Part shown: in pieces, positions 13,490-50,937 of the stretch
Layout of the letters: each line of letters opens with the position of its first letter
Position numbering within the stretch: the first letter of the stretch is position 1
The notes under the pieces: generated by a model
What the model was told of the DNA's origin: nothing
The model's input: the letters and a program-made list of their open reading frames with translations, nothing else
Databases searched by the model: none
Made by a program: the position numbers and the translations under genes
Virus record (IMG/VR): IMGVR_UViG_3300029267_002354
Location: 17,013-81,012 of that record
Length of the DNA: 64,000 nt
DNA from: a virus
Direction: 5' to 3' (one strand)

Positions 13490-19164
<5,675 letters not shown>

Positions 19165-40143: not shown

Positions 40144-40216
40144 GGCTCCATGGACTAATGGTTAGGTCAGCGGCCTTTCACGTCGCTAGTGGCGGGTTCG
40201 AGTCCCCCTGGAGTCA
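40144..40216 (+). tRNA. tRNA-Glu(TTC)
   Basis: Cloverleaf with acceptor GGCTCCA/TGGAGTC, anticodon stem GCGGC/GTCGC, loop CTTTCAC with anticodon TTC, and T loop TTCGAGT. The T stem has one C-C mismatch. CCA is not encoded. Confidence 0.9.
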
Positions 40217-40220
40217 ATTT

Positions 40221-40296
40221 GGCTCCTTAGCTCAGTTGGTTTTAGAGCGCTGGCCTGTTAAGCCAGAGTGCGTGAGTTCAAGTCTCACAGGGGCCT
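40221..40296 (+). tRNA. tRNA-Asn(GTT)
   Basis: Acceptor GGCTCCT/AGGGGCC, D stem GCTC/GAGC, anticodon stem CTGGC/GCCAG with loop CTGTTAA. CCA is encoded directly after (40297-40299). Confidence 0.92.
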
Positions 40297-40300
40297 CCAT

Positions 40301-40373
40301 GCTGGATTAGCTCAGCAGGCAGAGCACCTCCTTCGTAACGAGGATGTCGCCGGTTCGATTCCGGCATCCAGCC
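40301..40373 (+). tRNA. tRNA-Thr(CGT)
   Basis: Acceptor GCTGGAT/ATCCAGC, D stem GCTC/GAGC, anticodon loop TTCGTAA with anticodon CGT, T arm CCGG-TTCGATT-CCGG. The anticodon stem CCTCC/CGAGG has a mismatch next to the loop. Confidence 0.88.
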
Positions 40374-40388
40374 ATATGAAAAAGGCAA

Positions 40389-40471
40389 GCTGGAGTCGCC
40401 TAGTGGTTGATGGCACTGGATTTGTAATCCAGAGGCGAAAGCCCGCGTCGGTTCGAATCCGGCCTCCAGCT
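40389..40471 (+). tRNA. tRNA-Thr(TGT) with a long variable arm
   Basis: 83 bases. Acceptor GCTGGAG/CTCCAGC, anticodon stem CTGGA/TCCAG with loop TTTGTAA (anticodon TGT), T arm GTCGG-TTCGAAT-CCGGC. Between them are 14 bases containing GGC-GAAA-GCC, a proper variable-arm hairpin as in class II tRNAs, unusual for a Thr anticodon. Confidence 0.88.
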
Positions 40472-40476
40472 CTGAC

Positions 40477-40559
40477 GGACCGATACTCAAGTGGTCAACG
40501 AGATCTGACTTTTAATCAGATGCCTTTGTGCTTCGAGGGTTCGAATCCCTCTCGGTCCT
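40477..40559 (+). tRNA. tRNA-Lys(TTT) with a long variable region
   Basis: 83 bases. Acceptor GGACCGA/TCGGTCC, D arm TACTCAAGTGGTCAACGAG, anticodon stem TCTGA/TCAGA with loop CTTTTAA (anticodon TTT), 14-base variable region, T arm GAGGG-TTCGAAT-CCCTC. CCA follows (40560-40562). The D arm and the length are of Leu/Ser/Tyr type. Confidence 0.87.
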
Positions 40560-40565
40560 CCAAAT

Positions 40566-40637
40566 GCCTCTGCGATGTGACTGGTCGCATGCGAGATTTC
40601 CAATCTCGACGAGTCGGTTCGAGTCCGGCCAGGGGCT
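40566..40637 (+). tRNA. tRNA-Gly(TCC)
   Basis: Acceptor GCCTCTG/CAGGGGC (one G-U), anticodon stem CGAGA/TCTCG with loop TTTCCAA, T arm GTCGG-TTCGAGT-CCGGC. The D stem is short (ATG/CAT). Confidence 0.88.
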
Positions 40638-40638
40638 C

Positions 40639-40711
40639 AGAAGCGTAGATCAATTGGTAGATCACAAGCTTTTGGTGCTTGGTGTTGTGGGTTCAAGTCC
40701 CACCGCTTCTT
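40639..40711 (+). tRNA. tRNA-Gln(TTG)
   Basis: Acceptor AGAAGCG/CGCTTCT, D stem GATC/GATC, anticodon stem CAAGC/GCTTG with loop TTTTGGT. One base after the preceding tRNA. Confidence 0.9.
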
Positions 40712-40717
40712 TTGAAT

Positions 40718-40790
40718 GGGGCTGTAGCTCAATTGGGAGAGCGCTTCGCTTGCACCGAAGATGTCGCAGGTTCGATTCCTGTCAGCTCCA
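40718..40790 (+). tRNA. tRNA-Ala(TGC)
   Basis: Acceptor GGGGCTG/CAGCTCC, D stem GCTC/GAGC, anticodon stem CTTCG/CGAAG with loop CTTGCAC. Discriminator A. Confidence 0.92.
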
Positions 40791-40792
40791 CC

Positions 40793-40810
40793 GACGAACT
40801 TTAGTTCGTC
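40793..40810. repeat. Inverted repeat GACGAACT-TT-AGTTCGTC between two tRNAs
   Basis: Perfect 8-bp arms, the longest copy in the window, placed between tRNA-Ala and tRNA-Arg(CCG). Here it cannot serve a ribosome binding site, so the element is not tied to translation alone; it might mark a processing point. Confidence 0.85.
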
Positions 40811-40812
40811 AT

Positions 40813-40886
40813 TGATCCGTAGCTCAGTGGATAAGAGCACCTCTCTCCGGAAGAGGGTGTCGTAGGTTCGATTCCTACCGGGTCAG
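40813..40886 (+). tRNA. tRNA-Arg(CCG)
   Basis: Acceptor TGATCCG/CGGGTCA, D stem GCTC/GAGC, anticodon stem CCTCT/AGAGG with loop CTCCGGA. Confidence 0.9.
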
Positions 40887-40891
40887 AAAAC

Positions 40892-40964
40892 GCCCCTGTA
40901 GGCTAGTGGATAAAACCGCAGCGCTACGGACGCTGAATCGCTGGTTCGAGTCCAGCCGGGGGTG
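40892..40964 (+). tRNA. tRNA-Arg(ACG)
   Basis: Acceptor GCCCCTG/CGGGGGT, anticodon stem CAGCG/CGCTG with loop CTACGGA, T arm GCTGG-TTCGAGT-CCAGC. CCA is encoded (40965-40967). Reading CGC/CGA would require A34-to-inosine editing. Confidence 0.88.
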
Positions 40965-40968
40965 CCAG

Positions 40969-41039
40969 CGGGCCATAGCTCGAAGGTCGAGCGCCGTTCT
41001 CATAAATCGGTGGTGAAGGTTCGATTCCTTCTGGCCTGA
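40969..41039 (+). tRNA. tRNA with CAT anticodon (Met or Ile2)
   Basis: Acceptor CGGGCCA/TGGCCTG, D stem GCTC/GAGC, anticodon loop CTCATAA, T arm GAAGG-TTCGATT-CCTTC. The anticodon stem CCGTT/ATCGG has a T-T mismatch. C1-G72 is paired, so it is not a classic initiator. Whether C34 becomes lysidine (Ile2) cannot be read here. Confidence 0.85.
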
Positions 41040-41044
41040 AACAT

Positions 41045-41117
41045 CGGGGCATAGCTCAGCTGGGAGAGCGGGGGCCTTACAAGCCTCAGGTCGCAGGTTC
41101 GATCCCTGCTGCCCTGA
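41045..41117 (+). tRNA. tRNA-Val(TAC)
   Basis: Acceptor CGGGGCA/TGCCCTG, D stem GCTC/GAGC, anticodon stem GGGGC/GCCTC (one G-U) with loop CTTACAA. Confidence 0.9.
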
Positions 41118-41124
41118 CTGTTTT

Positions 41125-41148
41125 CCTGGATTCGTCCAGGTGGGTTTT
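41125..41148 (+). terminator. Terminator after the first tRNA block
   Basis: Perfect 6-bp stem CCTGGA/TCCAGG closed by a stable TTCG tetraloop, followed by TGGGTTTT. The T run is short and offset, so termination may be partial or the hairpin may act as a 3' processing barrier. Confidence 0.65.
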
Positions 41149-41153
41149 CTGGC

Positions 41154-41176
41154 TTGACACGATTTGTGGCTATGGT
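41154..41176 (+). promoter_or_regulatory. Possible promoter before the inter-tRNA gene
   Basis: TTGACACG at 41154 repeats the -35 sequence of the first tRNA promoter, directly after the TTCG hairpin. TATGGT at 41171-41176 is too close (11 bases) for an ordinary -10 and no good hexamer stands at 16-18 bases, so the call is weak. Confidence 0.3.
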
Positions 41177-41236
41177 AGCTCTTGATGCAGAGAGACAGGC
41201 ATCGAGGCACGTGTTGAGAGAGAAAAGGAGATAGTT

Positions 41237-41575
41237 ATGATTTTGAAAATAAAACAGCAGAGTCAGGAAGATGGTGTGTCGGATCGCTGGTGGGTCCTCG
41301 GTGAGATTGCCAAGGTCAGCTATGCGATGGAGCCGATGGAGGGTTTCTACGTCGGCAACGAGAAGGATCCAAAGACAGACAAACTGCATGCAGACATTGT
41401 TCTGGTTAATCCCATGGCGTCAGTCAAGGATGACGAACTTCAAACGGTTCCTGTTAATCGGATCGTTGCCAGGGATATTCGTGACAAGGAAACGGTGATT
41501 CTCTTCAATACGGTTGCATATTTGTGCAACGATCGTGGAGAGACCATAGAGAAGATCGTCGGAAATCACTGGTAG
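41237..41575 (+). CDS. Small protein encoded between the tRNA blocks
   Basis: 112 residues after AAAAGGAGATAGTT. It begins MILKIKQQSQEDGVSDRWWV and contains short beta strands (ADIVLVNPM, RIVARDIRDKETVILFNTVA) and no known motif. Its own upstream TTGACA and the terminator before it suggest independent expression. Confidence 0.7.
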   Translation: MILKIKQQSQEDGVSDRWWVLGEIAKVSYAMEPMEGFYVGNEKDPKTDKLHADIVLVNPMASVKDDELQTVPVNRIVARDIRDKETVILFNTVAYLCNDRGETIEKIVGNHW

Positions 41576-41623
41576 GTAGCAGCCTTCTGTCTGTCTCTCT
41601 TTTTTTGTAATCGGTAAGTGTTT

Positions 41624-41697
41624 CCGGGATTAGTTCAGCCTGGAGGAACGCTCGCTTTGGGAGCGAGAGGTCGCAGGTTCAAATCCTGCATCCCGGA
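41624..41697 (+). tRNA. tRNA-Pro(TGG)
   Basis: Acceptor CCGGGAT/ATCCCGG, D stem GTTC/GAAC, anticodon stem CTCGC/GCGAG with loop TTTGGGA. Confidence 0.92.
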
Positions 41698-41708
41698 CTG
41701 TTTGAGAT

Positions 41709-41782
41709 GGTGCATTCGCGTAGTGGTCTATCGCACCGGCCTGTCACGTCGGAATTCACGGGTTCGAATCCCGTATGCACCG
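41709..41782 (+). tRNA. tRNA-Asp(GTC)
   Basis: Acceptor GGTGCAT/ATGCACC, anticodon stem CCGGC/GTCGG with loop CTGTCAC, T arm ACGGG-TTCGAAT-CCCGT. Confidence 0.92.
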
Positions 41783-41783
41783 C

Positions 41784-41856
41784 CGAGGAGTAGAGCATTG
41801 GATGACTCGCTTGCTTCGGGAGCAAGACCAAGCTGGTTCGATTCCAGTCTCCTCGA
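41784..41856 (+). tRNA. tRNA-Pro(CGG)
   Basis: Acceptor CGAGGAG/CTCCTCG, D stem GAG/CTC, anticodon stem CTTGC/GCAAG with loop TTCGGGA. One base after the preceding tRNA. Confidence 0.88.
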
Positions 41857-41859
41857 AAC

Positions 41860-41932
41860 GGATCCGTAGGCTAGTGGATGAAACCGGTCGGCTTCTACCC
41901 GACTCTCCCCCGTTCGAATCGGGGCGGATCCT
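41860..41932 (+). tRNA. tRNA-Arg(TCT)
   Basis: Acceptor GGATCCG/CGGATCC, anticodon stem GTCGG/CCGAC with loop CTTCTAC, T arm CCCCG-TTCGAAT-CGGGG. Confidence 0.92.
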
Positions 41933-41935
41933 CTC

Positions 41936-42011
41936 TCCCAGGATGGCCAAGTCTGGTAAGGCACGCCTCTCATACGGGCGGTATCGCAGGTTCAAATCCT
42001 GCTCCTGGGAC
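41936..42011 (+). tRNA. Second tRNA with CAT anticodon (Met or Ile2)
   Basis: Acceptor TCCCAGG/CCTGGGA, D stem GGCC/GGC-type, anticodon stem CGCCT/GGGCG with loop CTCATAC, T arm GCAGG-TTCAAAT-CCTGC. Having two CAT tRNAs suggests one may be an Ile2 that needs lysidine. Confidence 0.87.
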
Positions 42012-42015
42012 TGAT

Positions 42016-42089
42016 TGCCTCGTAGCTCAGGGGACAAGAGCAGAGGATTCCTAATCCTCGTGTCGGCGGTTCGATTCCGTCCGGGGCAG
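42016..42089 (+). tRNA. tRNA-Arg(CCT)
   Basis: Acceptor TGCCTCG/CGGGGCA, D stem GCTC/GAGC, anticodon stem GAGGA/TCCTC with loop TTCCTAA. It ends 10 bases before the stop of the converging gene; no terminator is visible between them. Confidence 0.9.
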
Positions 42090-42099
42090 CAAGCGGGGA

Positions 42100-45636: not shown

Positions 45637-45665
45637 ACATTAAGCCGGTTTTTAAGGTTTGTCAA
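45637..45665 (-). promoter_or_regulatory. Minus-strand promoter at the end of the repeat array
   Basis: On the minus strand GTTGACAAACC, 17-base spacer from TTGACA, then TAATGT. The leader that follows (GATGCCGAGCAAGATGC then CGGAGGAAGGAA) closely matches the leader at the 49544 promoter. It should drive the 45331-45591 gene and the genes after it. Confidence 0.6.
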
Positions 45666-45671
45666 CAAAAG

Positions 45672-46783
45672 ATTCGAAGAAAAGTGCGGCTTCATAAGCG
45701 TTTGAGATGTTTGCGTTTACGTGGAATGTTTCTGTTTCCTGATATGGCTTCGATCAGAAAAAATGTTTCATTCGTTCCATATGGTTGCTCGTTGTCCCTT
45801 GTGTTTCCGTTTTCCTAGATGGATCTCGGTCGTGATTAATGCTTCCGTCTGCCGTTCTGCCTGCGATTCACATGGTTGTTTCGCTCCTGCACTGTGTCTG
45901 CTCTGACTCCTTTTGGTTCATTTCAGCATGATGGATACGATCGAGAGTCTTGCTTCTGTCGGTCAACTCGTCTCACCTTCCATTATTCTGGTTCATTAAT
46001 GCCACCTGGGTGCGCTCCAGTTTTGTGGTTCTCTTTCCGGAAATGGCTTCGATCGAGAGATATGGTTCCGTCGCTGTGGTTGGCTTCGTTTCAGCGTTAT
46101 GGTTCCATTGCCACGCCTGACTACTCTTCATCCTTTGGGATCCGTCACGTCGATTGGATTCACTCTCAACACTTGCTTCCGTCATTCGTCATGGCTCCGA
46201 TCCGCGCAACTGTTTCTATCTGGCCTTCTGTCTTCGAATGAGCGGTTTGACTCCATCGATTTTACTGTCTTCGATCGCACACCATGTTTTTGTCGTGAGT
46301 GTTGGCTTCGATTCGTTGTGTTGATTCTCTCTGGATCCATGTCTTCGTTTTGATCACTTGGTTCCGTCTAATATCATGGCTGGTTCTGAAACCATGCTTC
46401 TGTCCGGGTACATGTCTTCGATCGGGTGACTTGGTTCTTTCTGTTTTTATGTCTTCGATCTCCGAGTGTGGTTCGGTCTTGGAAGATGTCTTCGATCAAC
46501 CCACTTGTTTCATTTCCACAAGATGTCTTCGATCAGAGATCGTGTTTTTGTCGTGGATGATGTCTTCGATCACGAGCTTTGGTTCTTTTACGCAGACTGT
46601 CTTCGAATCTTCTACTTGGTTCGTTCAAGCAGCGTGTCTTCGATCGTATTCTTTGTTTCTGTCGTCGAAAGTGTCTTCGATCATGAGCAGTGGTTCTTTT
46701 ACCTAGACTGTCTTCGTTCGGGCATCGTGTTTCCGTCAGGAAGATTGTCTTCGATCACCGAGCATGTTTCAGTTGTTTCCCGT
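45672..46783. repeat. About 30 degenerate 37-bp tandem repeats in gene-free DNA
   Basis: Between the IS110-like gene and the promoter at 45665 there are 1.1 kb without a credible gene. The ten right-most units start exactly 37 bases apart, at 46414, 46451, 46488, 46525, 46562, 46599, 46636, 46673, 46710 and 46747. Each unit has GTCTTCGATC (first ten positions), about 9 variable bases, T-G-G/T-T-T-C at about positions 19-24, then 13 variable bases. Leftward units (46304, 46267, 46230, 46193, 46082, 46045 and on to about 45672) keep the phase with only 1-3 base slips while the first block decays and the second (TGGTTC/TGCTTC) persists. Units at 46562 and 46673 agree at 32 of 37 positions, hinting at a 111-bp higher-order period. 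The period is not a multiple of 3, so it does not encode a repeated peptide at 37 bp. Confidence 0.9.
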
Positions 46784-46805
46784 GTCTGGTTTTCAAAGAG
46801 CAATG

Positions 46806-46819
46806 CGAACTTGAGTTCG
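46806..46819. repeat. Inverted repeat CGAACT-TG-AGTTCG at the edge of the array
   Basis: Perfect 6-bp arms between the stop of the IS110-like gene and the 37-bp repeats. On the minus strand it stands 3' of the gene. Confidence 0.85.
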
Positions 46820-46823
46820 TTTT

Positions 46824-47993
46824 CTAGACCTCGCCGTAGAGGTGCCGGAGGCTTTTTCCGTCGGTCTCGACCTCGGGCGGCGCGATGTAGTGGGAGTGTT
46901 CTCCTTCGCAGTGCTTCGAGAAAGCGAACGGTACCGGGGGTGCCTCACCGTAGTAGTCCCGGTACATGACGTCGTGGAGGTGGCTCAGGAAGAGCTTGAC
47001 CACCCAGCGTCTCGCGCGCGCGTGGATGTGCGCGGGAGGGAGCTTGCCCTTCTCGTAGAAGGACTTGGCCCGGGATCGCTCCTTCTTGAGCTTGGAGAGG
47101 CACACGGCGGCATATTTGGCGAATTCTCCGGCCTCGTTTTTGGCCACTTCCTTGGCCTTGCGTTCGGCGAAGAGGTGCCCGTAGAAGTCGCTCTCGCGGT
47201 TCTGTGTCTTGACCCAAGACTCCCCGGCCTTGAAGCAGAGGACCTTGGCCCGATCGTTCCATGGGCGCAGCTGCCCCTTCTCCCAGGAGATGTCCGGGTT
47301 GAGGCCCGCGTAGTTCCAGAAGTGGCCTGCGGTCTTGGGCCGGATGAGGACGCCCTCTCCGGCGCGGAGGTCGTTGGCGTTGACCTCGTGGACGACTTTG
47401 CAGCTGCGGTCCTTGGTCTCTGGTCCGTTTCCGTCGTCTTCTTCCTTTTCGCCGTGGCCTCGGCGTCCGGTGCAGCGGAACCGGAGGATCCCGTTCTCGA
47501 AGTCTCCTCCGTAGGGGCGCATGCGGCGCTTCTGCTTGCCGTGCTTCTTGTCCTGGGCCTTGTCGGTGCAGTTGCAGTCGATGAGGAGCCGCTCCCGGAT
47601 GTCGAACGTGGTCAGGAAGGCTGCCGAGAGGACATCGGCGATCCCGGTGATGCCCTGGAGCCATTGGCCGACAGCGTACTCTTCGGCGAAGATCCGGAGC
47701 GAACTCTTGACGTCGCTCTCGATCAGGTCGAAGTTGCCGTGAGCCCAGTCGAGCAGATCTGACGGCTCTCCCTGGTCGTTGCACCGGAGTCTCTGGTGGT
47801 TGGCCCGGATGCGGACGTTCTGGTACTGGTAGTAGGAGTCGATGAGGTACCGGGCCTCTTGGATTCCCATGCGCTTGGCGTTTTCCCTGAGGTCCTGCGT
47901 GAGCCGGATCGTCGGATCCTGCATGGTGAACAGCTTCCTGGATGCTGCCGGGGTGCGCGGTTTGTTTTTCTTCTTGTCGTCTTTCGTTGCCAT
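46824..47993 (-). CDS. IS110-family transposase-like protein without a visible DEDD domain
   Basis: 389 residues from the ATG after AAGGAGAAGCAAG. Residues 30-115 are a long helical region; GITGIADVLSAAF (115-126) resembles the helix-hairpin-helix start of the IS110 C-terminal (transposase_20-type) domain. A Cys/Lys/Arg-rich insertion follows, then HFWNYAGLNP (224-233), KGQLRPWNDRAKVLCFKAGE, YGHLFAERKA and a basic end PPAHIHARARRWVVKLFLSH. I know this end from IS110-like proteins found in phages and bacteria. The usual N-terminal RuvC-like D-E-D-D domain is not seen, so it is probably a domesticated DNA- or RNA-binding relative. Own promoter at 48071; the 37-bp repeat array lies directly 3'. 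Confidence 0.65.
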   Translation of the reverse strand: MATKDDKKKNKPRTPAASRKLFTMQDPTIRLTQDLRENAKRMGIQEARYLIDSYYQYQNVRIRANHQRLRCNDQGEPSDLLDWAHGNFDLIESDVKSSLRIFAEEYAVGQWLQGITGIADVLSAAFLTTFDIRERLLIDCNCTDKAQDKKHGKQKRRMRPYGGDFENGILRFRCTGRRGHGEKEEDDGNGPETKDRSCKVVHEVNANDLRAGEGVLIRPKTAGHFWNYAGLNPDISWEKGQLRPWNDRAKVLCFKAGESWVKTQNRESDFYGHLFAERKAKEVAKNEAGEFAKYAAVCLSKLKKERSRAKSFYEKGKLPPAHIHARARRWVVKLFLSHLHDVMYRDYYGEAPPVPFAFSKHCEGEHSHYIAPPEVETDGKSLRHLYGEV

Positions 47994-48398: not shown

Positions 48399-48854
48399 CT
48401 ACTCCTCCGTTTTTTCTTTGTAGACACGCATGATGGTCCGGATGACCCTGTGCGGGATCATTGTGTCATTTTCGATCGCGGAGATCGATTCCTCGCAGTA
48501 CTGGGCCACGGCGGGTGAGAGGTCGTTTTGCGTCAGGAGGAACTGGGCCTTCTTTTTGAAAGCCTTCCTGTGTATCAGCTGATCGATGTGTCGGAGTGCG
48601 CTCTCGATCTTGTTCTTGAATGGATGGGTCGAGTGGACGTGGACGGCTTCCGGGACGGGCAGCGTGCCGTCTTTGACCTTCGGGACGTACCATCTGGCGA
48701 TGTCGAGTCCGGTTTCCTGGAACTCGCCGAGGTGGTAGTCGAAGCTCACCTCGGTGATCTCCCCTGTCCCCAGCAGATCGATTGCCTCATCGTAGTCCTT
48801 CGCCAGCATCCACCCCTCTGGGGCTGGGCGAGTGTCGTCGATGTAGAGTTTCAT
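48399..48854 (-). CDS. cREC-type receiver-like domain protein
   Basis: 151 residues. The first 85 match the cyclic-phosphate-associated receiver (cREC) pattern: KLYIDDTRPAPEGWMLA, VSFDYHLGEFQETGLDIARW and AVHVHSTHPFKN, with D6/D7 and the FDYHL Asp as the acidic pocket and the VHS motif typical of the group. The C-terminal half is helical. Such domains occur in phages and in RNA-repair or conflict contexts; the exact role here is unknown. Confidence 0.65.
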   Translation of the reverse strand: MKLYIDDTRPAPEGWMLAKDYDEAIDLLGTGEITEVSFDYHLGEFQETGLDIARWYVPKVKDGTLPVPEAVHVHSTHPFKNKIESALRHIDQLIHRKAFKKKAQFLLTQNDLSPAVAQYCEESISAIENDTMIPHRVIRTIMRVYKEKTEE

Positions 48855-49680: not shown

Positions 49681-49884
49681 ATGCGTCTCAACGTAGAAAT
49701 AAAGAAGAACGTGTATGATGAACTCGCGCATCACTGTGCCCGGGAGGGCAAGTCGATCAGCGAGGTTGTTCGCGGACTGGTGACGAATTGGAATGCCAAG
49801 AAGCGCAGGGAGGAGTTTCAAATCCTGCGCACAAGAGAAGGCACTGAAGAGGTGAAAGATGACGGAGAAAAGCGCTCAGGGTGA
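49681..49884 (+). CDS. Ribbon-helix-helix DNA-binding protein
   Basis: 67 residues. Residues 1-45 fit the Arc/CopG fold: a beta strand RLNVEIKKN, helix VYDELAHHCAREG, turn KSIS, helix EVVRGLVTNWNAKK. Such proteins bind direct or inverted operator repeats as dimers. It is the first plus-strand gene after the minus-strand block and overlaps the tail chaperone by 26 bases. Candidate binder of the inverted-repeat family or of the 37-bp array; that is untested inference. Confidence 0.75.
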   Translation: MRLNVEIKKNVYDELAHHCAREGKSISEVVRGLVTNWNAKKRREEFQILRTREGTEEVKDDGEKRSG

Positions 49885-50749
49885 GGGACAGGCCAACATG
49901 GACATGGTAGTCGCCGGAGATGAGAAAGTCGAAGCCCCGAAAACCAAGGGGAATGCGATGGACGTCGGCCCCGGGATCTTGTCTATGGACCTGCCGTGCG
50001 GGTACATTGATGAAGATGGGATCTTGCACGACAAGATTGTCGTGGGGGAGATGACCGGCTACGAAGAGGACATTCTGGCTGGGAAGGGGCCTGTGGTCCC
50101 CCGTCTGAACCAGATCATCGCCAACTGCACAAAACGGTTCGGTGACCTGACCGATAAAAAGGACATCAACGAAGCGGTCACGAACATGACATCTGTGGAT
50201 CGGATGGTGGCACTGATTGCGATCCGTCGAGTCTCCTTGGGTGACTTTTACGATGTGAAGATTCAGTGTCCGGACAGGGAGTGCAAGGCGCAGAATCGGT
50301 TCAGCCTGGATCTCTCCGAGATCGACATCGTCCGGATGAAGGACCAAAAGGCCCGTGTGCGTGAGGATGTTCTGGACTCGGGGCGTCGGGTCAAGTGGCA
50401 TGTCATGAGTGCCGAGGATGAGAGCTGGCTTTCGAAGCACGGAAAGCGCAAAGAGGACATGCTGACGCTGGCGATGCTTTCCAGGATCGACGCTGTGGAC
50501 GTTGCGGGCGAGGATGGGGTCTTGGGGCTCTATGTGATTGATCGGTCGACAAGGGATGGTCATCGGAACGCCATCGCGGCCCTGAAGTCGATCGGGATTC
50601 GGGATAGGAATTTCATCAGGCGGCTTTTCGAGAAGTTCGAAGGATCCGTGGACACTGAGGTCGAGTTCGTTTGTCCATCGTGTGGTCACGAGTGGTCTGC
50701 GGATCTGGACGTCGGGCAAGCGGGTTTTTTCTTCCCATCGGGCACGTAG
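49859..50749 (+). CDS. Tail-assembly chaperone / gp26-like protein, short form
   Basis: 296 residues. MDLPCGYIDEDGILHDKIVV, MTGYEEDILAGKG, a run ending VDRMVALIAIRR and YDVKIQCPDRECKAQNRF fit the gp26-like group, with CPDREC and a final CPSCGHEW forming a zinc site. It lies immediately before the tape measure, where tail-assembly chaperones are encoded. Near its end is a -1 slippery site, so this is the unshifted product of a pair, like lambda gpG. Confidence 0.75.
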   Translation: MTEKSAQGEGQANMDMVVAGDEKVEAPKTKGNAMDVGPGILSMDLPCGYIDEDGILHDKIVVGEMTGYEEDILAGKGPVVPRLNQIIANCTKRFGDLTDKKDINEAVTNMTSVDRMVALIAIRRVSLGDFYDVKIQCPDRECKAQNRFSLDLSEIDIVRMKDQKARVREDVLDSGRRVKWHVMSAEDESWLSKHGKRKEDMLTLAMLSRIDAVDVAGEDGVLGLYVIDRSTRDGHRNAIAALKSIGIRDRNFIRRLFEKFEGSVDTEVEFVCPSCGHEWSADLDVGQAGFFFPSGT

Positions 50750-50937
50750 GTGCCCTTGAGGAGGAAGTCTTTTTTCTCGAAGAGCTGCAGAGCGTTGGCT
50801 ACGATAGTATAATGGCCTTGCCATGGAGCAGAAGGAAGCGGTTTGTCGAGAAGAAGAATGACCTTGAGAAGCGAAAAGCAGACCAGGCCAGACAGGCTGC
50901 GAATCGGGCGAGATCCATGTCACGAAGACGGCGGTGA
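49859..50937 (+). CDS. Tail-assembly chaperone, -1 frameshift form
   Basis: Predicted 359-residue fusion: ribosomes slip at 50725-50731 and continue in the -1 frame, LPIGHVGALEEEVFFLEELQ through a basic helical end (WSRRKRFVEKKNDLEKRKAD, ARSMSRRRR). The -1 frame has no start codon upstream of its conserved-looking part except an internal ATG at 50812, which would cut it short; this favours frameshifting. Equivalent to lambda gpGT. Both ends match the zinc-ribbon/C-terminal basic pattern of gp26-type chaperones. Confidence 0.7.
50725..50755 (+). other. Programmed -1 frameshift site
   Basis: Slippery heptamer T-TTT-TTC in the zero frame (50725-50731), an 8-base spacer, then a perfect hairpin GGGCAC-GTAG-GTGCCC (50740-50755) whose loop holds the zero-frame stop. 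Heptamer, spacing and stem are those of efficient bacterial and phage frameshift signals. Confidence 0.8.

What the first reader, a model, noticed from the sequence alone, without database searches (positions are those of the whole stretch)
45672..46783. A 1.1-kb array of 37-bp tandem repeats with a conserved and a variable part
About thirty units keep a 37-bp period across gene-free DNA. Ten right-hand units start exactly 37 apart and share GTCTTCGATC and TG[G/T]TTC at fixed offsets, while about 20 positions vary; units further left are older-looking. Conserved blocks at fixed phase with variable filler suggest an array of protein-binding sites or a repetitive RNA rather than a gene. Candidate roles: replication origin or iterons, a partition or packaging site, or a multi-unit noncoding RNA. 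37 bp is about 3.5 helical turns, so neighbouring sites would alternate faces.
Basis: seen in the sequence. Interest (0 to 1): 0.9.

Follow-up and report, generated by a model that had tools for sequence, protein, structure and literature searches.

The report
A phage's TIGR guide-RNA array
The repeated stretch is a bank of paired short guide sequences that a neighbouring phage protein very likely uses to find DNA targets: a new example of the TIGR-Tas systems described in 2025, not a replication or packaging site.

Summary
The 37-bp array is real (lag 37, z 16). It is a TIGR array read on the minus strand: 29 units of edge repeat GATCGAAGACA, 8-nt spacer A, loop repeat GAC(A/G)GAA(A/C)CA, 8-nt spacer B. 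It starts 34 bp after the gene at 46824-47993, whose 389-aa product passes the curated cut-off of NCBI's TIGR-Tas model (141.8 bits, cut-off 100) and whose predicted fold matches solved TasH and TasR (Z 18.9, 18.2). About 40 residues precede the Nop-like core and no nuclease domain was recognised, so it is TasA-like. Of 80 related viral loci kept from 144, a dual-repeat array was extracted beside tas in 65. By homology, the array is transcribed with tas and cut into guides that bring TasA to split 16-bp DNA sites; processing, binding and targets are not shown here. No guide matches the phage's own 81-kb record with 0-1 mismatches. By-product: some relatives with near-identical tas differ by whole guide units, with changes mostly at the edge repeat, which bears on how such arrays grow. 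New member of a known kind.

The parts
45708..46789 (-). TIGR array: 29 units of edge (11) + spacer A (8) + loop (10) + spacer B (8), plus a lone last edge repeat; RNA runs from 46789 towards 45708
   Evidence: strand from relatives L132, L135, L116 and from the tally
46387..46756 (-). The ten best-kept units (1-10), exactly 37 apart; exact edge repeat in 8 of 10
46783..46789 (-). 5'-truncated first edge repeat (CCAGACA), 34 bp after the tas stop
   Evidence: feature described for TIGR arrays in PMC12045711
46824..47993 (-). tas gene, 389 aa, TasA-like (Nop-like core, no nuclease domain recognised)
   Evidence: NCBIfam NF052498.1 141.8 bits, cut-off 100; profile to PDB 9mty and 21kl; fold

Best explanation
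It is the guide array of a phage TIGR-TasA system. The array is most likely transcribed on the minus strand as a continuation of the tas message (inferred from order and strand). The transcript would be bound by the Tas dimer and cut in the edge repeats into about 29 guide RNAs of about 37 nt (inferred from the TasA, TasR and TasH experiments of Faure et al.). In each guide the two repeats anchor the RNA to the two Nop-like subunits by their shared ends (GA, box D; CA, box C), spacer A pairs with one DNA strand and spacer B with the other, giving a split 16-bp target. As no nuclease domain was recognised, the likely effect is to occupy, unwind and bend the target and so block its transcription or replication; likely targets are other mobile elements or host genes rather than the phage itself. 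Shown here: array anatomy, strand, Tas family and fold, the pairing of array and tas in relatives, no good self-target. Inferred: transcription, processing, DNA binding, role. My odds by step: identity as TIGR array with Tas 0.97; RNA-guided DNA binding 0.85; action against other mobile elements 0.45.
For: Tas passes the curated TIGR_Tas cut-off; the model passes its cut-off in 0 of 14 control genomes; 17 of 17 members of alignment A3 hit it at E <= 0.001. A 17-member profile finds TasR 9mty (8.7e-52) and TasH 21kl (2.5e-32) far ahead of IS110 transposases (2e-6). The AlphaFold2 model (pLDDT 72.7) matches TasH at Z 18.9 (220 aligned, rmsd 3.6) and TasR at Z 18.2 (194 aligned, rmsd 2.5), IS110 recombinases at 12.7. 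Repeats of 11 and 10 nt alternate with 8-nt spacers; both end in CA (edge C 100%, A 97%; loop C 97%, A 93% of 30 rows). The array opens with a truncated edge just after tas. In 65 of 80 related viral loci an array of 34-39-nt pitch with two CA-ending repeats was extracted beside tas, 54 downstream and 11 upstream, 53 with period 36.
Against: No RNA or binding data for this phage. No terminator recognised at the tas-distal end, where typical TIGR arrays have one. The edge is 11 nt and the unit 37, against the usual 10 and 36 of the relatives. Many tas-distal repeats are degenerate and may not work. No target found: own genome and 2.0 Mb of fetched loci do not exceed mis-paired controls. In 15 of 80 relatives the script extracted no array; for one of them (L149, same contig as L132) the array is visible by eye but cut by the contig end. 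11 of 17 members of A3 also hit the IS110 transposase model at E <= 0.001, more weakly; the window's protein does not.
Confidence: 0.9

Rival explanations
1. TIGR-TasA array used for regulation or DNA bending: the guides steer TasA to sites in the host or phage genome to repress genes or help recombination, rather than to fight other mobile elements.
For: No nuclease domain recognised; PMC12045711 proposes regulation or help to integrases for TasA.
Against: No self-target with 0-1 mismatches in the 81-kb record; 29 differing guides are many for regulation of a few genes (inference). The host is unknown, so host targets were not tested.
Confidence: 0.3
2. A decayed TIGR array: the tas-distal units, or the whole array, no longer give working guides.
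For: Repeats decay away from tas (rho -0.64); no terminator recognised.
Against: Units 1-10 keep exact 37 pitch and near-identical edges; tas frame is intact and its conserved residues are present. Decay with distance is not a rule in relatives: rho negative in 19 and positive in 21 of 40 distinct arrays.
Confidence: 0.12
3. An array of protein-binding DNA sites: replication iterons, partition or packaging site.
For: Fixed pitch and conserved blocks.
Against: 16 of 37 positions are variable spacer; the neighbour is a Tas protein; the same two-repeat plan lies beside tas in 65 of 80 relatives at pitches of 34 to 39.
Confidence: 0.02
4. A CRISPR array, or the bridge RNA of an IS110 transposon.
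For: PHROGs labels the frame 'transposase'; the core fold is shared with IS110.
Against: Repeats of 10-11 nt of two kinds with 8-nt spacers; no IS110 or DEDD family match for this protein in Pfam or NCBIfam at E <= 1.
Confidence: 0.01

Closest known systems
TIGR-TasA systems (Faure et al. 2025, PMC12045711), e.g. FpTIGR
   Same: Solo Nop-type effector beside a dual-repeat, dual-spacer array; array opens with a truncated edge repeat; end motifs shared by edge and loop.
   Different: 37-nt unit with an 11-nt edge; 8-nt spacers; ends GA...CA rather than the UG...CCA of TasR; 29 units where 5 to 15 are usual; about 80-residue low-confidence insertion in the core; no ParB partner seen.
The viral Tas clade gathered here (L132, 48% identical; L116, L135, L202 and others)
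   Same: Array on the tas strand, mostly directly downstream, repeats of GA...CA type, 8-nt spacers.
   Different: 53 of 65 have period 36; by the same script the window gives 30 rows, and 1 of 55 distinct arrays has 30 or more (L202, 48).
TaTasR (PDB 9mty) and TasH (PDB 21kl, 9vzx)
   Same: Nop core fold, Z 18.2 and 18.9.
   Different: They carry N-terminal RuvC or HNH nuclease domains (PMC12045711); this protein has about 40 residues there.
IS110 bridge-RNA transposases (IS621, ISCro4)
   Same: Nop-like RNA-binding part, Z about 12.6.
   Different: No DEDD domain recognised; an array instead of a single bridge RNA.
Box C/D snoRNPs
   Same: Nop domain and dual-guide logic (as told in PMC12045711).
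   Different: Partners L7 and fibrillarin were not sought here; comparison rests on the paper.

Membership tests
TIGR-Tas | Two alternating 8-12-nt repeats separated by short spacers (about 9 nt) | tested here: met
   Edge 11, loop 10, spacers 8 and 8; definition in PMC12045711, where SpTIGR also has 16 spacer nt in all
TIGR-Tas | Adjacent gene for a Nop-domain Tas protein | tested here: met
   NF052498.1 141.8 bits, cut-off 100; Z 18-19 to TasH and TasR
TIGR-Tas | End motifs (box D, box C) shared by edge and loop repeats | tested here: met
   Both end CA (93-100%); both usually start GA, less strictly: edge G 53%, A 83%; loop G 67%, A 97% of 30 rows
[quoted passage not shown]
   CCAGACA at 46783-46789
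TIGR-Tas | Array ends with a 3'-truncated edge and a rho-independent terminator | tested here: inconclusive
   Degenerate last edge; 45660-45735 minus folds worse than all 200 shuffles; no minus-strand terminator-like site there
TIGR-Tas | Processing into 36-nt tigRNAs that direct DNA binding | not testable with these tools
   Needs small-RNA sequencing and binding assays
TasR or TasH (nuclease-bearing Tas) | N-terminal RuvC or HNH nuclease domain | tested here: not met
   Model aligns from residue 41 to TasH 65 and from 44 to TasR 111, leaving about 40 low-confidence residues; no Pfam family at E <= 1 in the 512-aa frame
TasA with TasParB operon | parB-like gene in operon with tasA | tested here: inconclusive
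   No ParB match in Pfam among the flanking genes scanned; distant ParB relatives were not sought by fold
IS110 transposase | N-terminal DEDD domain | tested here: not met
   No IS110 or DEDD family at E <= 1 in Pfam or NCBIfam for this protein; IS110 chains align only from their residue 125
CRISPR array | One kind of 25-36-nt repeat with spacers of similar size | tested here: not met
   Two repeats of 11 and 10 nt, spacers of 8
Replication iterons | Near-identical repeats beside a replication initiator gene | tested here: not met
   16 of 37 positions are variable spacer; the neighbour is tas

The most novel reading that the evidence does not exclude
Viral TIGR arrays are changing guide repertoires in which whole tigRNA units (edge to edge) are gained and lost, almost always keeping order, faster than the tas gene changes; this points to recombination, or an unknown acquisition process, at edge repeats. 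The window's 29-unit array, tidy near tas and worn further away, would be one snapshot of such a repertoire.
Probability: 0.5. Interest if true: 0.7.

Novelty: new member of a known kind. Interest (0 to 1): 0.5.

Why it matters
TIGR-Tas is a young class of RNA-guided DNA-targeting systems; what the nuclease-free TasA branch does and where the spacers come from are named as open by its discoverers (PMC12045711). This phage adds a long natural TasA array, 29 guides, in an 81-kb record of a tailed phage with a contractile-tail sheath gene. The relatives gathered here show arrays of closely related viruses that differ by whole units with changes mostly at edge repeats, which makes the question of how TIGR arrays grow testable by comparing strains.

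Tried and rejected
Strand: I first took the plus strand as the RNA strand (notebook), because repeats start with TG there and a small hairpin follows; relatives L132, L135 and L116 showed repeats ending in CA on the tas strand, so I corrected it. That hairpin (46806-46819) is not above chance: 7 terminator-like sites found in the region, 6.4 expected, and the stretch folds no better than shuffles (z 0.87).

Other readings: iterons, partition, packaging, CRISPR, bridge RNA (see rivals). Rfam at gathering scores finds only tRNAs in the window. No similar DNA in the phages collection. ORFs of up to 167 aa overlapping the array on the plus strand are taken as chance, since relatives keep pitches of 34 to 39.

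Self-targeting: all 30 rows against the 81,012-base record, spacer A + gap 0-2 + reverse complement of spacer B: none at 0-1 mismatches, 5 at 2 (3 of these 5 lie inside the array, which was not masked); ten mis-paired controls gave 3-10 at up to 2 and 0-1 at up to 1. The other arrangement gave 6 against 2-9. Cross-targeting: 825 distinct guides from 66 arrays against 2.02 Mb of loci, arrays masked: 2 exact and 106 one-mismatch; three controls gave 0-5 exact and 111-144. Three other pairings or orders: 4, 0 and 3 exact against 1-4, 2-4 and 0-3. A collection scan with one guide was not made; I judged that 16 specified bases would give dozens of chance hits.

Three-unit duplication: not significant. 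Decay of repeats away from tas as a general rule: not general. Stray units elsewhere in the record: best scores 17.0, 16.4 and 15.6, within the range of the weaker array units (28 array units score 14.0-32.2), so none is convincing. Single-sequence fold useless (pLDDT 38). Two viral scans with the first Tas queries found no relatives. A scan with the repeat sequence gave 110 stretches, one match in each listed, of the order I expect by chance; a period scan of these loci gave some high values (L034, L080, L094, L088) that I did not inspect. Gene 49757-50923 has no PDB match at E <= 1. A motif script had a wrong expression, corrected. A first turnover table compared spacer pairs in unequal register and was replaced by a spacer-by-spacer one.

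Full report
OBSERVATION. The 37-bp periodicity is real: lag 37 has z 16.1 over dinucleotide shuffles, and both halves of the region show it on their own. Peaks at 18 and 19 show that each unit has two halves. Sliced in register there are 29 units plus a lone last edge repeat, with four one-base shifts (units 11, 22, 26, 27). Only the part nearest tas is regular enough for Tandem Repeats Finder.

ANATOMY. Read on the minus strand, a unit is edge repeat GATCGAAGACA (11), spacer A (8), loop repeat GAC(A/G)GAA(A/C)CA (10), spacer B (8). The best-kept positions are the CA ends (edge C 100%, A 97%; loop C 97%, A 93% of 30 rows) and parts of the GAA core; in spacer columns the commonest base reaches 30-47%. 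The array starts with a truncated edge 34 bp downstream of the stop of the gene at 46824-47993, on the same strand.

THE PROTEIN. PHROGs calls the longer frame a transposase (2.8e-31) and Pfam finds nothing at E <= 1, but NCBIfam NF052498.1, TIGR_Tas_endo, matches with 141.8 bits, cut-off 100. That model name says endonuclease; this member has only about 40 residues before the Nop-like core, and no nuclease domain was recognised. A 17-member profile finds solved TasR (8.7e-52) and TasH (2.5e-32) before the IS110 transposases IS621 and ISCro4 (2e-6 and 2.7e-6). The AlphaFold2 model from 15 sequences (mean pLDDT 72.7, 115 of 389 residues under 50) has TasR and TasH as all nine Foldseek matches with E <= 0.001, and VIA-align Z of 18.9 (TasH) and 18.2 (TasR) against 12.7 for IS110.

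RELATIVES. Motif scans led to an alignment search of viral contigs: 171 stretches matched a pattern, 144 encode a relative, the best 80 were kept. A period of 33-40 near tas was called, by a fixed threshold and without shuffles, in 74 of these 80 and in the window; at least one call, L149, is another repeat and not the array. With the stricter demand of at least six units and two CA-ending repeats on the tas strand, 65 of 80 remained: period 36 in 53, 38 in 4, 35 in 3, 34 in 3, 37 and 39 in one each; 6 to 48 units, median 15; 54 downstream and 11 upstream of tas; 55 distinct arrays. That demand fixes the strand; in the unforced tally TG starts (the other strand) occur in only two loci, L191 and L197, each with more CA ends, while seven called loci show neither. 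In the genome collection 16 stretches matched a pattern and 4 encode a relative: Halomonas, a Bryobacterales and a Solibacteraceae MAG, and a Woesearchaeota MAG. By eye, clear dual-repeat arrays are printed for L229 and L232, a short one for L230, none for L231.

MECHANISM. In the TIGR-Tas paper (PMC12045711; parts 1-4 of 12 of the text, section 24, figure legends and find passages read) TasA, TasR and TasH all bind 36-nt RNAs cut from the array, and for TasR and TasH spacers A and B pair with opposite DNA strands. Carried over here by homology: transcription after tas, cutting at edge repeats, split 16-bp targets, binding without cutting. None of these steps was tested for this phage.

TARGETS. 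None found. The phage's own record has no match with 0-1 mismatches, like most mis-paired controls. In 2.02 Mb of fetched loci the guides of 66 arrays do no better than mis-paired ones.

TURNOVER IN RELATIVES. Of the 65 arrays, 52 pairs have tas matches at least 90% identical; many pairs repeat one virus. Of 32 pairs at 97% or more, 17 share all or nearly all spacers, 14 share a part, and 1 shares none (L175 and L177; L175 is cut by its contig end). Of 20 pairs at 90-97%, 2 share one spacer and 18 none. Among 1995 pairs under 80% or unaligned, 1963 share none, 31 one, 1 two. The clearest cases are those where the flanks also align: L216 and L217 (9.2 kb at 99.7%) differ by exactly two units; L160 and L173 (3.1 kb at 93.0%) share 17 of 44 and 38 spacers; L173 and L177 (3.1 kb at 93.1%) 16 of 38 and 32; L193 and L194 (6.4 kb at 92.2%) 21 of 54 each. 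Shared spacers keep their order in nearly all cases.

Where changes fall. In five partly shared pairs, switches between shared and unshared spacers fall at edge repeats 43 times and at loop repeats 13 times, counted on the first array of each pair (42 and 12 on the second). A spacer A that is shared has its own spacer B shared in 110 of 131 cases, a spacer B the next spacer A in 67 of 120 (eight overlapping pairs). Limits: the pairs are not all independent (L173 occurs twice), a point change counts as unshared, edge labels rest on repeat similarity, and assembly errors in repeats are not excluded. Against a simple turnover reading: in several low-sharing pairs little besides tas aligns (L161 and L174 1.0 kb, L198 and L211 0.8 kb, L183 and L189 0.5 kb, L153 and L169 none), so exchange of tas or array between different viruses is also possible. 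Of 124 unshared units, 9 resemble another unit of the same array at 12 or more of 16 positions, against 0 of 124 shuffled, so local duplication explains few.

NOVELTY. The locus is a new member of a known kind. Its own traits are the 37-nt pitch with an 11-nt edge, a length matched or passed by 1 of 55 distinct relative arrays, repeat decay away from tas, and an insertion in Tas. Paper searches for 'TIGR-Tas', 'tigRNA', 'TIGR array' with spacer and phage, and 'Nop domain' with phage and TasA gave the discovery paper and one review with content (PMC12385481, find passages seen). In what I saw of them array turnover between close relatives is not described; the library lacks most subscription papers, so this is weak evidence of absence.

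Noticed in passing
L002 5360-6640 (Gordonia phage Morrissey gp42): A 'hypothetical protein' of a cultured phage matches TIGR_Tas at 206.8 bits; long inverted repeats, seen by eye, flank it on both sides as in stem-loop TIGR arrays. A possible laboratory model.
   Followed up: partly
L126, L127, L133, L134, L141: A second Tas clade with 36-bp arrays (repeats like TACGAGTCA and TGAAACCCA); by eye some units recur between contigs in different surroundings.
   Followed up: partly
L132 11600-11670: One complete-looking unit lies just upstream of the tas frame, apart from the array downstream; it might act on tas expression.
   Followed up: no
window 46824-47993, residues about 135-216: Low-confidence insertion with several cysteines in the Nop-like core; L117 has a cysteine-rich insertion at the same place, L116 none.
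   Followed up: no
L122 (stretch of the 140-kb record G003): Tas is encoded but no dual-repeat array was seen in the 14 kb fetched; it may lie elsewhere or be absent.
   Followed up: no
window 40144-42090: Cluster of 18 tRNA genes by ARAGORN, 17 of them over Rfam's threshold.
   Followed up: no
window 13867-19164: 1765-aa frame full of repeats built on 9 bp, collagen-like Gly-X-Y coding (the label is recalled).
   Followed up: no
window 48399-48854: Gene upstream of tas matches the cREC_REC domain (Pfam PF20274, 1.2e-20).
   Followed up: no
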